55,180 nucleotides of DNA from contig CALXOW010000102.1 of assembly GCA_944390115.1 (NCBI GenBank), forward strand, positions 1 to 55,180, in the 5' to 3' direction. Shown in pieces: positions 28,445-34,580 of the stretch. Origin of the DNA: an uncultured Anaerobiospirillum sp. (lineage in GTDB: Bacteria; Pseudomonadota; Gammaproteobacteria; Enterobacterales; Succinivibrionaceae). How positions within the stretch are numbered: position 1 is the stretch's first letter; every line of letters starts with the position of its first letter. The position numbers and the translations under genes were made by a program. The notes under the pieces were generated by a model. That model was given only the letters and a program-made list of their open reading frames with translations. It did not search any database and was not told the DNA's origin.

Positions 28445-28625
28445 GCGCCAATAGGCGGCGTCAGCGCCGCCTTAAGCGGGCCCACCTGCGCAAGCTAGAA
28501 CGATTTTTGCAAGCAAGCTCAGTGGGCACGTTTGTGACGCGTTGCGCCCGACGCCCATGACCATAATTTATGGGGCATATTCCAAGTTTTGGGATATGAC
28601 CGAACATCACAAAGTGAAGACTGCT

Positions 28626-29111
28626 ATGCACCACAAGAATTTGACCGCCGCTGCATTAGTGCTTGTCAGTGCGCTGAGTGTCAGCACCGCTCCAGCATTT
28701 GCCGCACCTGATTCCTCTAAGGCTGCTGCCCTCAATGTGGCGAGCACCACTAACCCCAACGAAGTCCTAGTGCAAGCCACCGCCCCTGAGATTGGCTACT
28801 ACGACATGACGCCTGATTTCACTACCAATCTGGCGAGCATGGGCCGGGGTCGTCTGCACTACGTGCGCATTCACGTGAACATCATGGTCAAGGACAATGC
28901 CGACCTGCCATTAGTCACCGAGCAAGACCCGCTGATTCGTGACGCGATCTTATCGATCATCGGCACCAAGGAGTACAACGCCATTGCCACAGCCGCCGGT
29001 CGTGAAGCCTTGCGCGCAGAGTGCCGCGCCCGTGTCGCCGAGATCTTAGCCGAGAAGAAGGGCGGCCCAGTCCTGCAAGACCTGCTCTTCACCAACTACG
29101 TCTATCAATAG
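28626..29111 (+). CDS. Exported FliL-like protein
   Basis: 161 aa: a signal peptide (LTAAALVLVSALSVSTAPAFA), then a domain like the periplasmic part of FliL (LHYVRIHVNIMVKDNA; DPLIRDAILSIIGTKEYNAI; LQDLLFTNYVYQ). FliL normally works at the flagellar stator, but no flagellar gene is nearby and the membrane anchor is replaced by a cleavable signal. Similar stand-alone FliL-like proteins occur in other gammaproteobacteria. An upstream in-frame ATG at 28596 is an alternative start. Confidence 0.65.
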   Translation: MHHKNLTAAALVLVSALSVSTAPAFAAPDSSKAAALNVASTTNPNEVLVQATAPEIGYYDMTPDFTTNLASMGRGRLHYVRIHVNIMVKDNADLPLVTEQDPLIRDAILSIIGTKEYNAIATAAGREALRAECRARVAEILAEKKGGPVLQDLLFTNYVYQ

Positions 29112-29312: not shown

Positions 29313-29868
29313 GCTCTGATCCGTTGCCACCGGTGTCTCACCCCAAGCCCGGTGAGGCTTGGGCGCCCCGCACCTAACCGGTCTCTAAGGAACCTGGGCC
29401 GGTGCGAACTCAGGCTCAAGCCAATTTTGTCCTTGCCCCGCGCGGCAAAGATTGCTCACATTGCCCGTGCGGCAACCTAGGCTCCCTCCTTGATTGGCCC
29501 TCTTTGCTGCCACTTTGGTGGCTATGCGCATAAATGGCGCAAAATCAGGCTTTTGCACCAACTTTAGGCAAGTTGAGCTAGACCCCCTCAGATTGGCGCT
29601 AATTAGCTACAACCAAGCGCCCTGTGAGCCCCCATGCCCAGCGTCCTTTAGTTCTTAAATTTGTGACACATCCTCAAGTTTTGACATTAAAAACCGCATA
29701 AACATGGCATCTATCGCATCTATGAGATCTGAATTATTGAATCCACATCACGCTTTAGGTAGGGTGAGCGGTATGAATCATGCGACTTATGCAGCCGCAG
29801 ATGCCTGCATCAGCTGAGGCCTAAGACTCAGCTGGGAGGTGAGGCCATGTGGAGAGGAGAGATGACCC
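29313..29868 (+). other. Long upstream region of the first SDSxNS-family gene
   Basis: No gene beyond a short leader ORF (29847-29903). A perfect -35 TTGACA stands at 29681-29686 but the matching -10 is poor. A perfect hairpin CAGCTGAG/CTCAGCTG (29811-29834) lies just before the ribosome site GGGAGGTGAGG. Confidence 0.45.
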
Positions 29869-29903
29869 ATGATCTTAAACTCAGACTCCGTCAACAGTCC
29901 TAG
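29847..29903 (+). CDS. Possible 18-codon leader peptide overlapping the next gene
   Basis: ATG at 29847 sits after a very strong GGGAGGTGAGG site and reads MWRGEMTHDLKLRLRQQS before TAG. It overlaps the start of the next gene in another frame, so it could couple or attenuate its translation. No homology is recognised. Confidence 0.3.
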   Translation: MWRGEMTHDLKLRLRQQS

Positions 29904-30981
29904 CATGGGACGACTTGCGGCCCTGGATCAGAACGCCCGTAATCAGGCCAATCAAAACAACCTGACCCAAGATTCAGTCGCAACCGACCTTAACAGCACC
30001 CAAATTGCCGCTCAGGTTGATAAGAGCGCCCAAGAACAAGCGCAGCAACAAGCCCAACAACAATCCCAGCAGCAAACTCAGGCAACAGCGAGCGCGCAGG
30101 CGCCCGTCTCCGTCGCTACCGCCTCGAAGTTTTTAACCTACGCCAACCAGTGGTTTGCCACCCATGCCAAGGCCCTAAACGCCACCTCCAGCTACACTCA
30201 AACCAGCAACCTCAGCGCCCAGCAGACTAGCGCTGACGAGAGTGGGGCCAGCCTCAAGGTCACCCCTGACGAGCAAAAGAGTGCCACTACTTCGGTGCTC
30301 AAGAGCTTAATCTACGGTGTGCCCTTAAGCGGTGATGCCAAGCGCTTAATCAGTGATGCCTCGAGCTTTATTGGCCTCAACGGCTTATCGGCGGATATGC
30401 AGAAGCTGGCCCAAGAGAGCAGCAACTACGTTTTTGATACGCCGCTGGGCAAGATGACCCAACGCGACTTAAAGAGCCTCTCCCAGCGCATTTTTACCTT
30501 TGTCCACAACCCATCAGCGGCCTCCAGAAACCTGGTCCTAGCCGCGCTCCAAGACATCCAAGGGCGCCAGCACGAGATGCAGGCCCAAGCCATTGGCCAA
30601 GGCCCCTTTGCCAAGATCATGACCGAGATTCGTGAGAACGCAGGCAAGCCAAAGTCGCAGCAAGAAGGACAAGAGCACGAGGTCAAGTTCCAAACCCAAG
30701 CGGACAAGGCCGAGCAAACCGCCAGCGCCGCCAAGATGACGGCCGAAGAGTACAGCCAGGAGCAAGTGAGCGCCGCCTATGACAAGAAGGATGACGAGAC
30801 CGAGAGCAAGCTCGACTTAGAGACGCAGATCAAGCGCCTGCAAAACCCAGATCACGAAGAGGATCAACAATTCCTCTCCAACTTCAACGCCAGCCACGAG
30901 CTGCTACGCGATAACGAGCCGACAGCCAACCAAACCGCCGCTCCAACCTCCGAGCAGGCCGCCCCTGCAGCAGCGCCCTAG
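29869..30981 (+). CDS. SDSxNS/LIYGVPLS-family protein 1 (unknown function)
   Basis: 370-aa protein that I do not recognise; paralogue of the product at 32640. Shared blocks are an N-terminal SDSxNS (SDSVNS), LIYGVPLSGDAKRLI (about 147-161), YVFDTPLGKMTQRDL (about 188-202), DIQGRQHEM (about 226-234) and FLSNFNASHELLRD near the C-terminus. Residues ~50-80 are Gln-rich (QAQQQSQQQ), and the C-terminus is Ala/Pro-rich. No signal peptide or membrane segment; probably soluble and largely helical. It stands directly before the antitoxin/Fic pair. The ATG at 29869 overlaps a short leader ORF. Confidence 0.7.
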   Translation: MILNSDSVNSPSMGRLAALDQNARNQANQNNLTQDSVATDLNSTQIAAQVDKSAQEQAQQQAQQQSQQQTQATASAQAPVSVATASKFLTYANQWFATHAKALNATSSYTQTSNLSAQQTSADESGASLKVTPDEQKSATTSVLKSLIYGVPLSGDAKRLISDASSFIGLNGLSADMQKLAQESSNYVFDTPLGKMTQRDLKSLSQRIFTFVHNPSAASRNLVLAALQDIQGRQHEMQAQAIGQGPFAKIMTEIRENAGKPKSQQEGQEHEVKFQTQADKAEQTASAAKMTAEEYSQEQVSAAYDKKDDETESKLDLETQIKRLQNPDHEEDQQFLSNFNASHELLRDNEPTANQTAAPTSEQAAPAAAP

Positions 30982-31030
30982 GCTGAAGCCTAACGCGCCC
31001 CACCGCTCTAACCAATCCGCACCTAACCTA

Positions 31031-31053
31031 GGCCGAGCCCCCAAGGCTCGGCC
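31031..31053 (+). terminator. Hairpin after SDSxNS gene 1
   Basis: Perfect 9-bp stem GGCCGAGCC/GGCTCGGCC, followed by a weak T-containing stretch. A terminator is plausible. Confidence 0.55.
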
Positions 31054-31067
31054 TTGGTAGTTGGTGC

Positions 31068-31096
31068 TTGCCGTACAATCCACTATCACCTAAGAT
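31068..31096 (+). promoter_or_regulatory. Promoter of the antitoxin-Fic operon
   Basis: TTGCCG (31068-31073), 17-nt spacer, TAAGAT (31091-31096), about 38 bp before the antitoxin start. No obvious operator palindrome overlaps it. Confidence 0.65.
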
Positions 31097-31134
31097 TGCA
31101 CTACGATTGATTTAGCAACTAAAAGGATAATCTC

Positions 31135-31401
31135 ATGTACCGCATAGGCTCCCCACGCGATATCCGTATCCGCGAAATGGCTGGATTCAAGGCCTTTATC
31201 GAGGTCGACCTGGCCGACGAAGCATCACGTAAGCCGTACCGTGAGCTGTATGACAAATACATCGAAGGCGAAATCGATGATGACGGGTTTGATGATGGCC
31301 TTAAACGCATAGCAGAACACTACCGCACTAAAAAGGCATTAGTTTCTGAAGAAACAGAAATGCAGTTAACAGCTGATGAAATGAACAAGCTTTTTGCCTA
31401 A
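31135..31401 (+). CDS. VbhA-like antitoxin (putative)
   Basis: 88 aa. The segment LYDKYIEGEIDDDGFDDGLKRI matches the C-terminal part of VbhA-type Fic antitoxins (a YxxGEI pattern). The usual inhibitory motif [S/T]xxxE[G/N] is only partly present: KAFIEV (19-24) keeps the Glu but not the flanking residues. Such antitoxins plug the Fic ATP pocket with this Glu. AAAGGA lies 8 bases before the ATG. It ends 11 bp before the Fic gene, as in known modules. The last third and the junction are more A/T-rich than neighbouring genes, suggesting transfer. Confidence 0.6.
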   Translation: MYRIGSPRDIRIREMAGFKAFIEVDLADEASRKPYRELYDKYIEGEIDDDGFDDGLKRIAEHYRTKKALVSEETEMQLTADEMNKLFA

Positions 31402-31412
31402 ATAGTTGAGAT

Positions 31413-32378
31413 ATGTTTTTTCAAAACATAAACGAAGATTTAGTAATTGCAGCTAACACCAGAAACATAAGAAAGCTACGCAAAGAGACCATCCCTGCAA
31501 CCATAAACCGTGAGACCGTGCTGGAGCTTAACCGCCGCATCTTTGCCGGAATTGAAGTGGCAGGCTACACCCCAGGTACCTTTCGTCCGGCCTCGGATCC
31601 TGGCGCGTTCAATATCTCATCGCGCAATCTACCCTCTCAAAGCAACCGCCAGATCTTCTCGATGCGCTCGCTGGTAGACGAGGCGGCGTTAGCGCGCTTT
31701 GATCAAGCGCTCACTGAGCTTACCCCCAATAGGCTCAAGCCGCTTAGTACTTCTGAGTTTATCGCTAAAATCAGCGCTATCTATGCCCGTTTGGACTACA
31801 CCCATCCTTTTTGGGACGGCAACAGCCGCACCTTCCGCACCTTAATGGAAATGGCCGCCCACGAGGCTGGTTTTGACCTCAATTGGGACCAAATAGCAGC
31901 CAGCCAAGCATTACGCGATGCGCTCTACTGCGCGCGCAGTATTGAGGCCAACCGCTTAGCCCTAAAAGACCCAGCCCAAGCCCACGTCCGAGAGAGTGTG
32001 GAAAATATGCTGGAAGCGCTGAGCGACCAGCGCAGCTTAAGTGAGCTCCTGACCCAAGAGGAGATCGTGACTCCGATCCGCGCACTCGCCCTAATCAAAG
32101 CCATTCAGGAGAGCTTTAACGCTGCAAGCCACGAGCCTATGCGCTTCAAACAGCACTTGAGCCAAGAATGCCGGAAACTTAGCCTCCAATATCCAGAAAT
32201 CACAGAGGCACTCACGCAGCTGACCTGCTTTATGGAAGCCAAGATCACCAACGATCCACGTGGTTATCACACCTTGCTACACCAAGTCCTACCGGCCTTT
32301 TACCAAGTAATAGCCAGTGGTCAAACCATCATCACTCCAGAGCTGTTGAGTCAGTCCGTACCAACCTCAAACCAATGA
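31413..32378 (+). CDS. Fic-domain protein (putative AMP-transferase toxin)
   Basis: 321 aa. The Fic motif reads HPFWDGNSRTFR (131-142), so the catalytic His and both Arg are present, with Ser in place of the usual Gly/Lys of GNGR. The upstream flap/target region (TPGTFRPASDPGAFNISSRNL) fits the family. Fic enzymes usually transfer AMP to a Ser/Thr/Tyr of a target; the Ser variant could alter nucleotide handling. Residues ~215-321 form a helical C-terminal domain I cannot name. Co-transcribed with the antitoxin; no strong ribosome site, so translation may be coupled. Confidence 0.85.
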   Translation: MFFQNINEDLVIAANTRNIRKLRKETIPATINRETVLELNRRIFAGIEVAGYTPGTFRPASDPGAFNISSRNLPSQSNRQIFSMRSLVDEAALARFDQALTELTPNRLKPLSTSEFIAKISAIYARLDYTHPFWDGNSRTFRTLMEMAAHEAGFDLNWDQIAASQALRDALYCARSIEANRLALKDPAQAHVRESVENMLEALSDQRSLSELLTQEEIVTPIRALALIKAIQESFNAASHEPMRFKQHLSQECRKLSLQYPEITEALTQLTCFMEAKITNDPRGYHTLLHQVLPAFYQVIASGQTIITPELLSQSVPTSNQ

Positions 32379-32450
32379 CCTTTAAGCCAAGCTGCGCGCT
32401 AATACGCCTTTAACGGCACCAAACCAGCGCCTGCCGTGCCCCAGCTCCGC

Positions 32451-32481
32451 CTTAAGCGGCAGCTTTTGCCAGCTGCTTAAG
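32451..32481. other. Hairpin downstream of the Fic gene
   Basis: CTTAAGC.GCAGC pairs with GCTGC.TTAAG around TTTTGCCA. It lacks a T-run, so terminator activity is uncertain. Confidence 0.4.
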
Positions 32482-32639
32482 CCTAGGCGCTCGCGCCTCC
32501 ACCACGCACAAATTTGTACCGCGCCGCATGTACAGCCGCACTCGGCGCAAATTATTGCGCACGGCCACACCTTGGCACAATCGTGGCACTAAGCAAGGCA
32601 TGGGTGCGGCCTTGCCGCAGCAAGTTTGAGGGCTACTCT

Positions 32640-33572
32640 ATGATTTTTATCTCTGATTCGGCCAACAGCCAGAGCCTAGGCTGGCTCCAAGACTTAGACC
32701 GGGACGCGCGCCGCAGTGGCGGTGATTCGCAGTTTAAGAAAACCTTGGCCGCTGAAGCCTTGCCCACCACCCAGATTAGCCTCGAGGTCGGTAATAGTTC
32801 CGAGCAACAAAGCACGCGCAATGCCTTAATGGCCCAGCAGAGCGACACAGTGCGCGGCGCGGCTAACACCTTGGCGCGCCTCCAGCAATTCCTAGCCGCC
32901 CAAGAACCAGCCACTACAGCTAATCCAACTGATCCAGCCAAGGATGGAACCTTAGGCTCAGTCAATGCTGAGTTTGAGTACCAAAACGAGGAAGGCGATT
33001 GGGTCAAAGTACCTGTTGAGCTTAAGACTGGTGGCATTGAGCCTTTTGAAGGTTTTGTCACTCCTGAAGACCAAACCAAAGCCCTGCTCTCGGTGCTCAA
33101 CAGCCTAATCTACGGCGTCCCCCTCAGTGATGAGGCAAAAGAGCTCATTAAGGGCGAAGACAGCTTTATGTGGCTGTTAGGAATTGAGCAAGATGAGCTC
33201 AATTACGCCAAGGAAAATCCCGACTATGTGCTCGATACGCCGCTGGGCAAAATGACCTACAGCGACTTAGAGGAGCTCAGCAAGCGCGTCTATAATTACG
33301 TGGACAACCCAACCTTTACCACGCGCCTCGCGGCCCTAGCGACGCTCCAAGACATCGACGAGCGCCAAGACGAGCTTACTGCTCAATTTGACCAGCAAGC
33401 CCCATTCTCTGAGATTAAGGCTCAGATGCAGCAGGCTGCGGAGCAGCGCAAAGAAGTAGCCCAAGAGCAAGACATCAAGGATCAAATCAAGGAGCTCCAC
33501 GATAAGGAGCATGAGGCCGACCAGAACTTCCTCACCAACCTCAAGTTCAGCTACGACCTGCTACGCAGCTAA
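32640..33572 (+). CDS. SDSxNS/LIYGVPLS-family protein 2 (unknown function)
   Basis: 310 aa, paralogue of the product at 29869. It has SDSANS at the N-terminus, LIYGVPLSDEAKELI, YVLDTPLGKMTYSDLEELS, DIDERQDELTAQ and FLTNLKFSYDLLRS at the very end. It lacks the Gln-rich tract and the Ala/Pro tail of the first copy and is more acidic. No signal peptide. GAGGG stands 10 bases before the ATG at 32640; the frame upstream to 32514 is open but not conserved with the paralogue. It is followed by a strong terminator. Function unknown. Confidence 0.7.
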   Translation: MIFISDSANSQSLGWLQDLDRDARRSGGDSQFKKTLAAEALPTTQISLEVGNSSEQQSTRNALMAQQSDTVRGAANTLARLQQFLAAQEPATTANPTDPAKDGTLGSVNAEFEYQNEEGDWVKVPVELKTGGIEPFEGFVTPEDQTKALLSVLNSLIYGVPLSDEAKELIKGEDSFMWLLGIEQDELNYAKENPDYVLDTPLGKMTYSDLEELSKRVYNYVDNPTFTTRLAALATLQDIDERQDELTAQFDQQAPFSEIKAQMQQAAEQRKEVAQEQDIKDQIKELHDKEHEADQNFLTNLKFSYDLLRS

Positions 33573-33674: not shown

Positions 33675-34580
33675 TTAGCGCAATGGGCGCTTGAAGTCGA
33701 CCAAGGCTAAGGCCATACCCACTAATAAGCCGCCTAAGTGGCAGATATTGGCGATGCCACTAAAGAGGAAGCCAATGCCGATGAAGATGGCACTGACTAA
33801 GAGCAAGCCTGGCGGGAGCCTCAGGTCACTGGGCAAGTCATGCCGTCTTGAGAGCACGCCCATATAACCGATCACGCCATAGACCACGCCACTTAAGCCG
33901 CCGAAGATAGCGTTACCGCCGAGACCCGATTGCAGGAAGATAAACTGCAAGATGTTCGAGACCAAGGCGATGGTCAGGATGATGTAGCCTATCTTCCAGG
34001 CGCCAAAGTGACGCTCAATCGGGCGGGCAAAGGCCTCAAACATCACCAAGTTAAACAGGATGTGGATGATGCCAAAGTGCAGGAAGATAGGCGTGAGCAC
34101 GCGCCACACCTGAAAATCAGCCGTCACCTGATCCCAGTGGTACCACGAGAGCGCCCCTAAAAGCGCATTTTCGAGGCTAGGCACGAGGCTTAGCACGAAG
34201 ATCAGTAGGCATATGACCTCAATGATGGAGGTCAGGCTCGCAAGACTCCAGGTATAGGTCCCCATGGAAAAAGATAGGAAGCTGGCGTTACTGCTGACCG
34301 TGCGCTCGCGCTTAGGGGTCTTACCTTGGGACCAGGCCGCTTGATTGTAGGCCTTGGCAAAAGGATTATTGCCAAAGCGCAACAGCTCGAGCTTAGCCTT
34401 GGAGACATCGGCCTCATTGGCGACGTAGATCGAGTAGTTGGCGCCAAAGCCGGGCTTGGCCGTAGCCTTAATCCCAATCGAGTTGAGATAGTCGGCAAAC
34501 TTGAGCGCCGCGCCGCGATCGCGCATCACGCCAATCTCAAAGGGGAAGTTGTAGTCGTCTATTTCTTTGAATTGAGCCAT
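33675..34580 (-). CDS. glpG: Rhomboid intramembrane serine protease GlpG
   Basis: Cleaves membrane-embedded substrates. 301 aa: a cytoplasmic N-terminal domain (~1-95), then six membrane helices with Ser230 (GGLSGVVYG) and His281 (ICHLGGL) as the catalytic dyad and [19 protein letters not shown] in the L1/TM2 region. The start lies inside the hldD end (22-bp overlap), so the two are probably translationally coupled. E. coli GlpG sits instead with glpE/glpR. Confidence 0.92.

What the first reader, a model, noticed from the sequence alone, without database searches (positions are those of the whole stretch)
29869..33572. VbhA-like/Fic module enclosed by two paralogues of an unrecognised family
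Two genes sharing SDSxNS, LIYGVPLS, DTPLGKMT and a C-terminal LLR motif flank an antitoxin-Fic pair, all on one strand. Fic modules are known, but I know of no such partner. The paralogues could be Fic targets, chaperones, or secreted partners; or the Fic pair may have inserted into a tandem duplication.
Basis: partly seen in the sequence, partly recalled or inferred. Interest (0 to 1): 0.72.

Follow-up and report, generated by a model that had tools for sequence, protein, structure and literature searches.

The report
Fic pair inserted between orphan paralogues
In a bacterium of the genus Anaerobiospirillum, a plasmid-type Fic toxin-antitoxin pair has landed between two related genes of an undescribed, lineage-restricted protein family, so the two are probably neighbours by accident; the family itself may belong to the set of genes switched on with the flagellum.

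Summary
Observation confirmed: P1 (29869-30981) and P2 (32640-33572) are true paralogues (BLASTP E 1e-51) enclosing a small antitoxin-like gene and a Fic gene. The implied partnership is not supported. In relatives G009 and G010, P1 and P2 are adjacent without Fic; five further genomes have only about 60-390 bases between fliL and glpG there. Of nine carriers of the family, only G000 and G003 have Fic beside it. Fic relatives occur without the family, and on plasmids.

P1/P2 form a fast-evolving orphan family in 7 of 11 Anaerobiospirillum genomes and, weakly, two other Succinivibrionaceae, without a credible Pfam, NCBIfam, PDB or Foldseek relative. P2 has a sigma-54-type site, the window's best, same score in all four genomes with that locus; some flagellar genes of the genome carry similar sites. 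P1/P2 lack cysteine and membrane helices. I suggest, at moderate confidence, a flagellar-regulon accessory protein. P2 carries a tract 67% identical between genomes otherwise 99% identical around it.

The parts
29660..29754 (+). Conserved upstream block of P1 (possible activator-binding region)
   Evidence: Aligned in three genomes (G000, G009, G010) with long identical runs. Its role is inference.
29769..29784 (+). Weak sigma-54-like site of P1
   Evidence: GG/GC spacing kept in three genomes, but scores of only 10.5-11.5 of 14.7; 20% of random 100-nt stretches reach 10.5 and 4.6% reach 11.5.
29869..30981 (+). P1, paralogue 1 of the orphan family, 370 aa
   Evidence: ORF; P2 homology E 1e-51; dN/dS 0.15 against G009.
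31135..31401 (+). Small antitoxin-like gene upstream of Fic, 88 aa
   Evidence: ORF. Same gene order as in G024, G037, G045 and on plasmids pIPO2T, pXAC47 and pYK0709-71. hhalign to plasmid VbhA proteins E 9.4e-5; no Pfam VbhA match.
31413..32378 (+). Fic-domain protein, 321 aa
   Evidence: PF02661 E 1.7e-9; Bep/VbhT chains; 29-34% identity to the 20 plasmid Fic proteins listed of 165.
31803..31838 (+). Fic motif with GNSR in place of GNGR
   Evidence: GNSRT is invariant in all 8 aligned proteins, two plasmid ones included; the histidine is lost in G018.
32573..32588 (+). Sigma-54-type -24/-12 site of P2, 51 nt before its ATG
   Evidence: Score 13.2 of 14.7, the only hit of 13 or more in the window; same score in G003, G009 and G010; 0.15% of random 100-nt stretches reach it.
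32640..33572 (+). P2, paralogue 2, 310 aa from the ATG
   Evidence: dN/dS 0.17 against G009.
32900..33260 (+). Divergent allele tract inside P2
   Evidence: 67.3% identity between G000 and G003 over 349 aligned bases, against 99.0% over the 13,067 aligned bases outside P2. P2 dS 0.56 against 0.03 (P1) and 0.08 (Fic).
28596..29111 (+). fliL-family gene; with glpG it marks the site
   Evidence: PF03748 E 1.5e-24; next to glpG without P1/P2 in G004-G008.
33675..34580 (-). glpG-like rhomboid gene, right border of the site
   Evidence: PF01694 and PF12122.

Best explanation
Two unrelated layers. (1) P1 and P2 are tandem paralogues of an orphan family that arose or arrived between fliL and glpG in one Anaerobiospirillum clade. 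They are probably separate transcription units; P2 has its own sigma-54-type promoter site. The most likely role is an accessory, possibly exported, protein made with the flagellum: the N-terminus is predicted disordered and lacks a Sec-type signal by hydropathy; it is followed by a small conserved domain (LIYGVPLS ... DTPLGKMT hairpin) and a long C-terminal helix. (2) A plasmid-type class I Fic toxin with its upstream small inhibitor later inserted between P1's stop codon and P2's promoter site in the G000/G003 lineage. It should work as other Fic pairs do: the Fic protein would transfer AMP to a target and the small protein would hold it inactive. It needs neither P1 nor P2. Shown here: gene order, homology, empty sites, Fic-free relatives, conserved P2 promoter-like site. 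Inferred: activity, inhibition, promoter use, flagellar co-regulation, export. My estimates: insertion without functional partnership 0.9; P2 under sigma-54 control 0.65; flagellar role 0.4.
For: P1-P2 adjacent without Fic in G009 and G010. About 60-390 bases and no P1/P2 match between fliL and glpG in 5 of the 7 genus genomes without P1/P2 there; of the other two, G001's glpG lies at a contig edge and G002 had no glpG match. The four carriers form one group on the GlpG tree, support 88/94, 10 of 11 genomes. P1s and P2s form two separate groups. Fic relatives without the P family in G018, G037, G045; in G037 and G045 beside an ORF that I read as a mobilisation protein. Plasmid Fic relatives: 165 records, typed by PLSDB as 70 conjugative, 65 mobilizable, 30 non-mobilizable; a small gene just upstream in the three opened, a Pfam VbhA match in the two tested. 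P2 site conserved; rpoN in 7 of 7 genus genomes searched; sites of 13.7-14.2 before flgO and flgE-, flgF- and flgJ-like genes. No cysteine in 7 of 7 full-length P1/P2, while none of 32 other window ORFs that I took as genes lacks it. No hydrophobic stretch of membrane-helix strength.
Against: Of six sites scoring 13 or more in the flagellar stretches examined, two do not precede a flagellar gene, and flgG, flgH, flgI, a flgA-like and a cheR-like gene have no good site. Genome-wide, the strict sigma-54 pattern occurs 8 times against 5 for the reversed control. P1's own site is weak, and the G005 and G007 members have none (10.5 and 11.0). All 9 carriers have fliG, but so do 48 of 57 family genomes (chance 0.19). 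The 88-aa gene also lacks cysteine, the G004 P-family member has one, and cysteine loss may simply follow from Q/A-rich composition. A recent functional recruitment of Fic in G000/G003 alone cannot be excluded.
Confidence: 0.55

Rival explanations
1. P1 and P2 are functional partners of the Fic pair: targets, chaperones or co-secreted proteins.
For: All four genes lie on one strand within 3.7 kb in two genomes.
Against: No Fic between P1 and P2 in G009 or G010; six of nine carriers have no match to this Fic and a seventh has it on another contig; P2 keeps its own conserved promoter-like site downstream of Fic; full-length Fic relatives occur without P genes.
Confidence: 0.06
2. P1/P2 are surface or secreted proteins under diversifying pressure (phage, host or competitor), unrelated to flagella.
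For: Divergent allele tract in P2 between otherwise nearly identical stretches; in-frame loss of the P2 middle in G010, keeping the first 51 and last 16 residues; fast-evolving middle region.
Against: No signal peptide or membrane helix by hydropathy; the 370 aligned residues of P1 are unchanged between G000 and G003, which only adds a short C-terminal end; dN/dS stays below 1 in each segment for which it could be computed, at most 0.32; one genome pair only, metagenome assemblies.
Confidence: 0.25
3. P1/P2 are cytoplasmic regulatory or scaffold proteins of some other sigma-54 pathway.
For: Sigma-54-type site; P1 upstream block where an activator could bind; no Sec-type export signal by hydropathy.
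Against: The best sites elsewhere that I could tie to named genes here are flagellar, though mainly flagellar regions were examined for this; fliL neighbours P1.
Confidence: 0.25

Closest known systems
Class I Fic pairs (VbhA-VbhT of Bartonella; plasmid Fic/VbhA pairs)
   Same: Small gene directly upstream of Fic; Fic motif with its His, Asn and both Arg; relatives on plasmids, 70 of 165 records typed conjugative. A Fic-VbhA operon on a natural plasmid is in print (PMC6595937, passages read).
   Different: GNSR instead of GNGR; small protein not recognised by the Pfam VbhA model and without the SxxxE motif at the aligned place; chromosomal site between P1 and P2; the Pfam scan lists no BID domain.
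Flagellar co-expressed determinants (Feds) and FspA of Campylobacter jejuni
   Same: Proposed analogy only: non-structural proteins made with the flagellum, FspA described as small and acidic (PMC9856085, passage read); P1 and P2 are acidic (net -13 and -27).
   Different: No sequence relation was tested or shown; Feds use sigma-28 promoters, P2 has a sigma-54-type site; full-length P1/P2 are 307-395 aa.

Membership tests
Class I Fic (FicTA/VbhT type) | Fic domain with catalytic motif | tested here: met
   PF02661 E 1.7e-9; HPFWDGNSRTFR. Variant: S for the second G of GNGR, shared with the two plasmid relatives aligned.
Class I Fic (FicTA/VbhT type) | Separate small gene directly upstream | tested here: met
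Class I Fic (FicTA/VbhT type) | AMP transfer, and inhibition by the small protein | not testable with these tools
   Needs a bench test.
VbhA antitoxin (PF18495) | Match to the family model | tested here: not met
   No match for the window protein; the two plasmid relatives tested match.
VbhA antitoxin (PF18495) | Inhibitory helix with [S/T]xxxE[G/N] | tested here: inconclusive
   The aligned place reads E..A; an invariant K19xxxE23 in the four rows could be a shifted equivalent. SxxxE and the inhibitory Glu: PMC3667792, passages; the [G/N] ending is recalled.
Sigma-54 regulon | Conserved -24/-12 site before the gene, rpoN present | tested here: inconclusive
   Sequence feature met for P2, weak for P1, not met for the G005 and G007 members. 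Consensus and weights are recalled; use of the site was not tested.
Flagellar export substrate | Export through the flagellar apparatus | not testable with these tools
   Only indirect hints: no Cys, no Sec-type signal.

The most novel reading that the evidence does not exclude
P1/P2 found a new family of sigma-54-controlled proteins exported through the flagellum in Succinivibrionaceae, whose middle segment is swapped between strains by recombination while both ends stay fixed: a modular, diversifying flagellar accessory protein in a genus that also multiplies its flagellin genes.
Probability: 0.15. Interest if true: 0.6.

Novelty: new member of a known kind. Interest (0 to 1): 0.33.

Why it matters
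It removes a tempting partnership that relatives do not bear out: gene enclosure here looks like a recent insertion, with both a Fic-free and a fully empty state found in relatives. It also leaves a testable orphan family: if P2 depends on RpoN and is exported, Anaerobiospirillum has lineage-specific flagellar accessory proteins with exchangeable middle segments.

Tried and rejected
Sigma-28 promoter for P1: 20 flagellin upstream regions of G000 and G009 served as a yardstick; I saw no common sigma-28 pattern in them, and one of them also reached 12 of 16, so the 12-of-16 match before P1 was dropped. Known fold for the P family: AlphaFold2 model of P2, mean pLDDT 63; Foldseek against the PDB gave nothing at E <= 0.001. 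Viral, plasmid or phage origin of the P family: no relative in viral contigs with the family profile, nor in plasmids and phages with P2 alone at E up to 0.1 (P1 was not tried there). Fic in viral contigs: no relative. PDB profile search: best E 0.097, not credible. Pfam for P1: Stb3 at E 0.072, below its cut-off. PADLOC and PHROG hits of P2 are weak and partial (best E 0.0019 and 0.027). Weak order-wide hits: G291 was looked at and rejected as an unrelated membrane-type protein; G184 was not looked at. Family-wide hits above E 0.01 (G011, G034, G056, G027) were dropped. Flanking repeats of the Fic insertion: none convincing. Silent donor for the P2 tract: the own-genome search lists only P1 and P2, in an incomplete assembly.

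A second fold (P2 core alone) had not finished at ten polls. The VIA-align library was not ready.
Full report
What is there. The window lies in a genome assembly G000 (123 contigs, 92.9% complete). A genome scan with the P-family profile returned four loci, all named Anaerobiospirillum, the nearest being CALXXU010000061.1 at 100% identity to P1. Four genes stand on the + strand: P1, a small gene, Fic and P2. dN/dS against G009 is 0.15 and 0.17, with synonymous sites near saturation.

The Fic pair. The Fic protein matches Pfam Fic and Bartonella Bep/VbhT structures. tblastn finds 165 plasmid records, all below 60% identity and the 20 listed at 29-34%; PLSDB types 70 as conjugative, 65 as mobilizable and 30 as non-mobilizable. 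In the three opened (pIPO2T, pXAC47, pYK0709-71) a small gene lies just upstream; the two tested match Pfam VbhA. The window's small protein does not match that model, but its four-row profile aligns with three plasmid proteins (hhalign E 9.4e-5, probability 59%). GNSRT replaces GNGRT in all 8 proteins aligned, two of them from plasmids, so it marks this lineage and is not decay in this genome. Among 98 relatives searched, 14 match the Fic query; besides G000 and G003, full-length matches occur in G024 (59%), G037 and G045 (38%) and G018 (31%), the other eight being partial. In G037 and G045 the pair stands beside a protein that I read, from its sequence alone, as a plasmid mobilisation protein. 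A Fic-VbhA module on a natural plasmid is described in PMC6595937 (passages), and recruitment of Fic toxins to conjugation in PMC5675462 (passages).

Linkage test. In 98 relatives (G000 included) the P2 query matches 5, all in the genus. Profile searches raise the family to 7 of 11 genus genomes (G000, G003, G004, G005, G007, G009, G010) plus two weak outliers, G024 (E 2.2e-4, a short frame that soon meets stops) and G031 (E 0.003, split over two frames). The G007 member was found at E 5.8e-4 by a profile without it, the G005 member at E 3e-13 by a profile that held G007. Fic is beside the family only in G000 and G003; six of the other seven carriers have no Fic match at E <= 0.001 and G024 has it on another contig. 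G009 and G010 have P1 and P2 directly next to each other. Further, fliL and glpG are neighbours with about 60 to 390 bases between them in G004 to G008, 5 of the 7 genus genomes without P1/P2 there; G001's glpG lies at a contig edge and G002 gave no glpG match. The GlpG tree groups the four P1/P2 carriers (88/94; 10 of 11 genomes), and P1s and P2s form two separate groups. The simplest order of events is: empty site; P1/P2 between fliL and glpG; Fic pair between P1 and P2. The insertion lies between P1's stop codon and a CGGCAGCTTTTG block shared with G009 and G010, upstream of P2's promoter-like site. I found no flanking repeats that would tell the mechanism.

What the P family may do. No credible Pfam, NCBIfam or PHROG family or PDB sequence matches. 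The AlphaFold2 model of P2 (8 sequences, mean pLDDT 63) is of low confidence over the first 58 residues and in stretches to 139; residues 142-241 form helices and a short hairpin at DTPLGKMT, followed by a long C-terminal helix. Foldseek finds no solved relative at E <= 0.001. There is no signal peptide or membrane helix by hydropathy.

Promoters. A scheme of my own, with recalled sigma-54 consensus and weights (maximum 14.7), scores 13.2 at 32573-32588, 51 nt before P2, the only hit of 13 or more in the window. G003, G009 and G010 have the same score 51-57 nt before P2, although the surrounding sequence has drifted in G009 and G010. A score of 13.2 is reached in 0.15% of random 100-nt stretches and in 35 of 4000 300-nt stretches. 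The G024 and G004 members score 13.2 and 12.7 at 63 and 66 nt; G005 and G007 have none (10.5, 11.0). P1's site is weak and rests on conservation of spacing in three genomes. In the same genome, sites of 13.7-14.2 stand before flgO (Pfam FlgO) and flgF-, flgE- and flgJ-like genes (the last at 168 nt), with lower scores for flgK (12.7), a cheV-like gene (12.2), flgB and flgD (11.7), and none of note for flgG, flgH, flgI, a flgA-like and a cheR-like gene (gene names other than flgO rest on my reading and on the rod-domain matches). Of six hits of 13 or more in the stretches examined, two precede no flagellar gene; at 11.5 or more the two 19-kb stretches hold 49 against 32.4 in shuffles. The strict pattern occurs 8 times genome-wide against 5 in the reversed control, so sequence alone is not proof. 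rpoN is present in 7 of 7 genomes searched. All 9 carriers have fliG, but so have 48 of 57 (chance 0.19): consistent, not evidence.

Other hints. P1 and P2 have no cysteine in 7 of 7 full-length copies, while none of 32 other window ORFs that I took as genes lacks it; of eleven flagellar proteins, four have none, five have one, and flgI and flgO have two and four. The 88-aa gene also has none and the G004 P-family member has one. That exported flagellar proteins are poor in cysteine is recalled; Q/A-rich composition could give the same. Campylobacter Feds and FspA (PMC9856085, passage) are the analogy I have in mind; no relationship was tested.

A mosaic gene. G000 and G003 are 99.0% identical over 13,067 aligned bases outside P2, but 67.3% over the tract 32900-33260. 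P2 dS is 0.56 against 0.03 for P1 and 0.08 for Fic. In the tract the two are about as far from each other as from G009. In G010, P2 has shrunk in frame to 67 aa, keeping both ends and the promoter-like site. At least G003, G009, G010 and G004 are metagenome assemblies by title, so chimeric assembly is possible; recombination with a divergent allele is my reading.

Verdict. Observation confirmed; partnership not supported; insertion of a known kind of module into an undescribed lineage-restricted gene pair. I make no claim about print for the P family: my six paper searches were not aimed at it.

Noticed in passing
Genus genomes G000-G010 (outside the window): Flagellin N-domain (PF00669) matches per genome run from 4 (G004) and 9 (G003) through 17 (own genome) and 43 (G005) to 101 (G006) and 150 (G007, where only 150 of 162 candidates were scored), a striking multiplication of flagellin genes.
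   Followed up: no
window 32900-33260; L040 P2: Divergent allele tract inside P2 (67% identity) between two genomes that are 99% identical around it.
   Followed up: partly
L042 1680-1883: In G010, P2 is reduced in frame to 67 aa, keeping the conserved N-terminus, the C-terminal LLRS end and the promoter-like site.
   Followed up: partly
L019 370-2415: In G018 the Fic relative has lost the catalytic histidine while keeping DGNSRT, and the gene before it encodes a 358-aa protein with an antitoxin-like N-terminus.
   Followed up: no
L017 and L018: In G037 and G045 closely similar Fic pairs sit beside a protein that looks like a plasmid mobilisation protein.
   Followed up: no
L150, L152: Distant P-family members in G007 and G005 both lie next to a folE-like gene, so this copy seems to have its own conserved place.
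   Followed up: no
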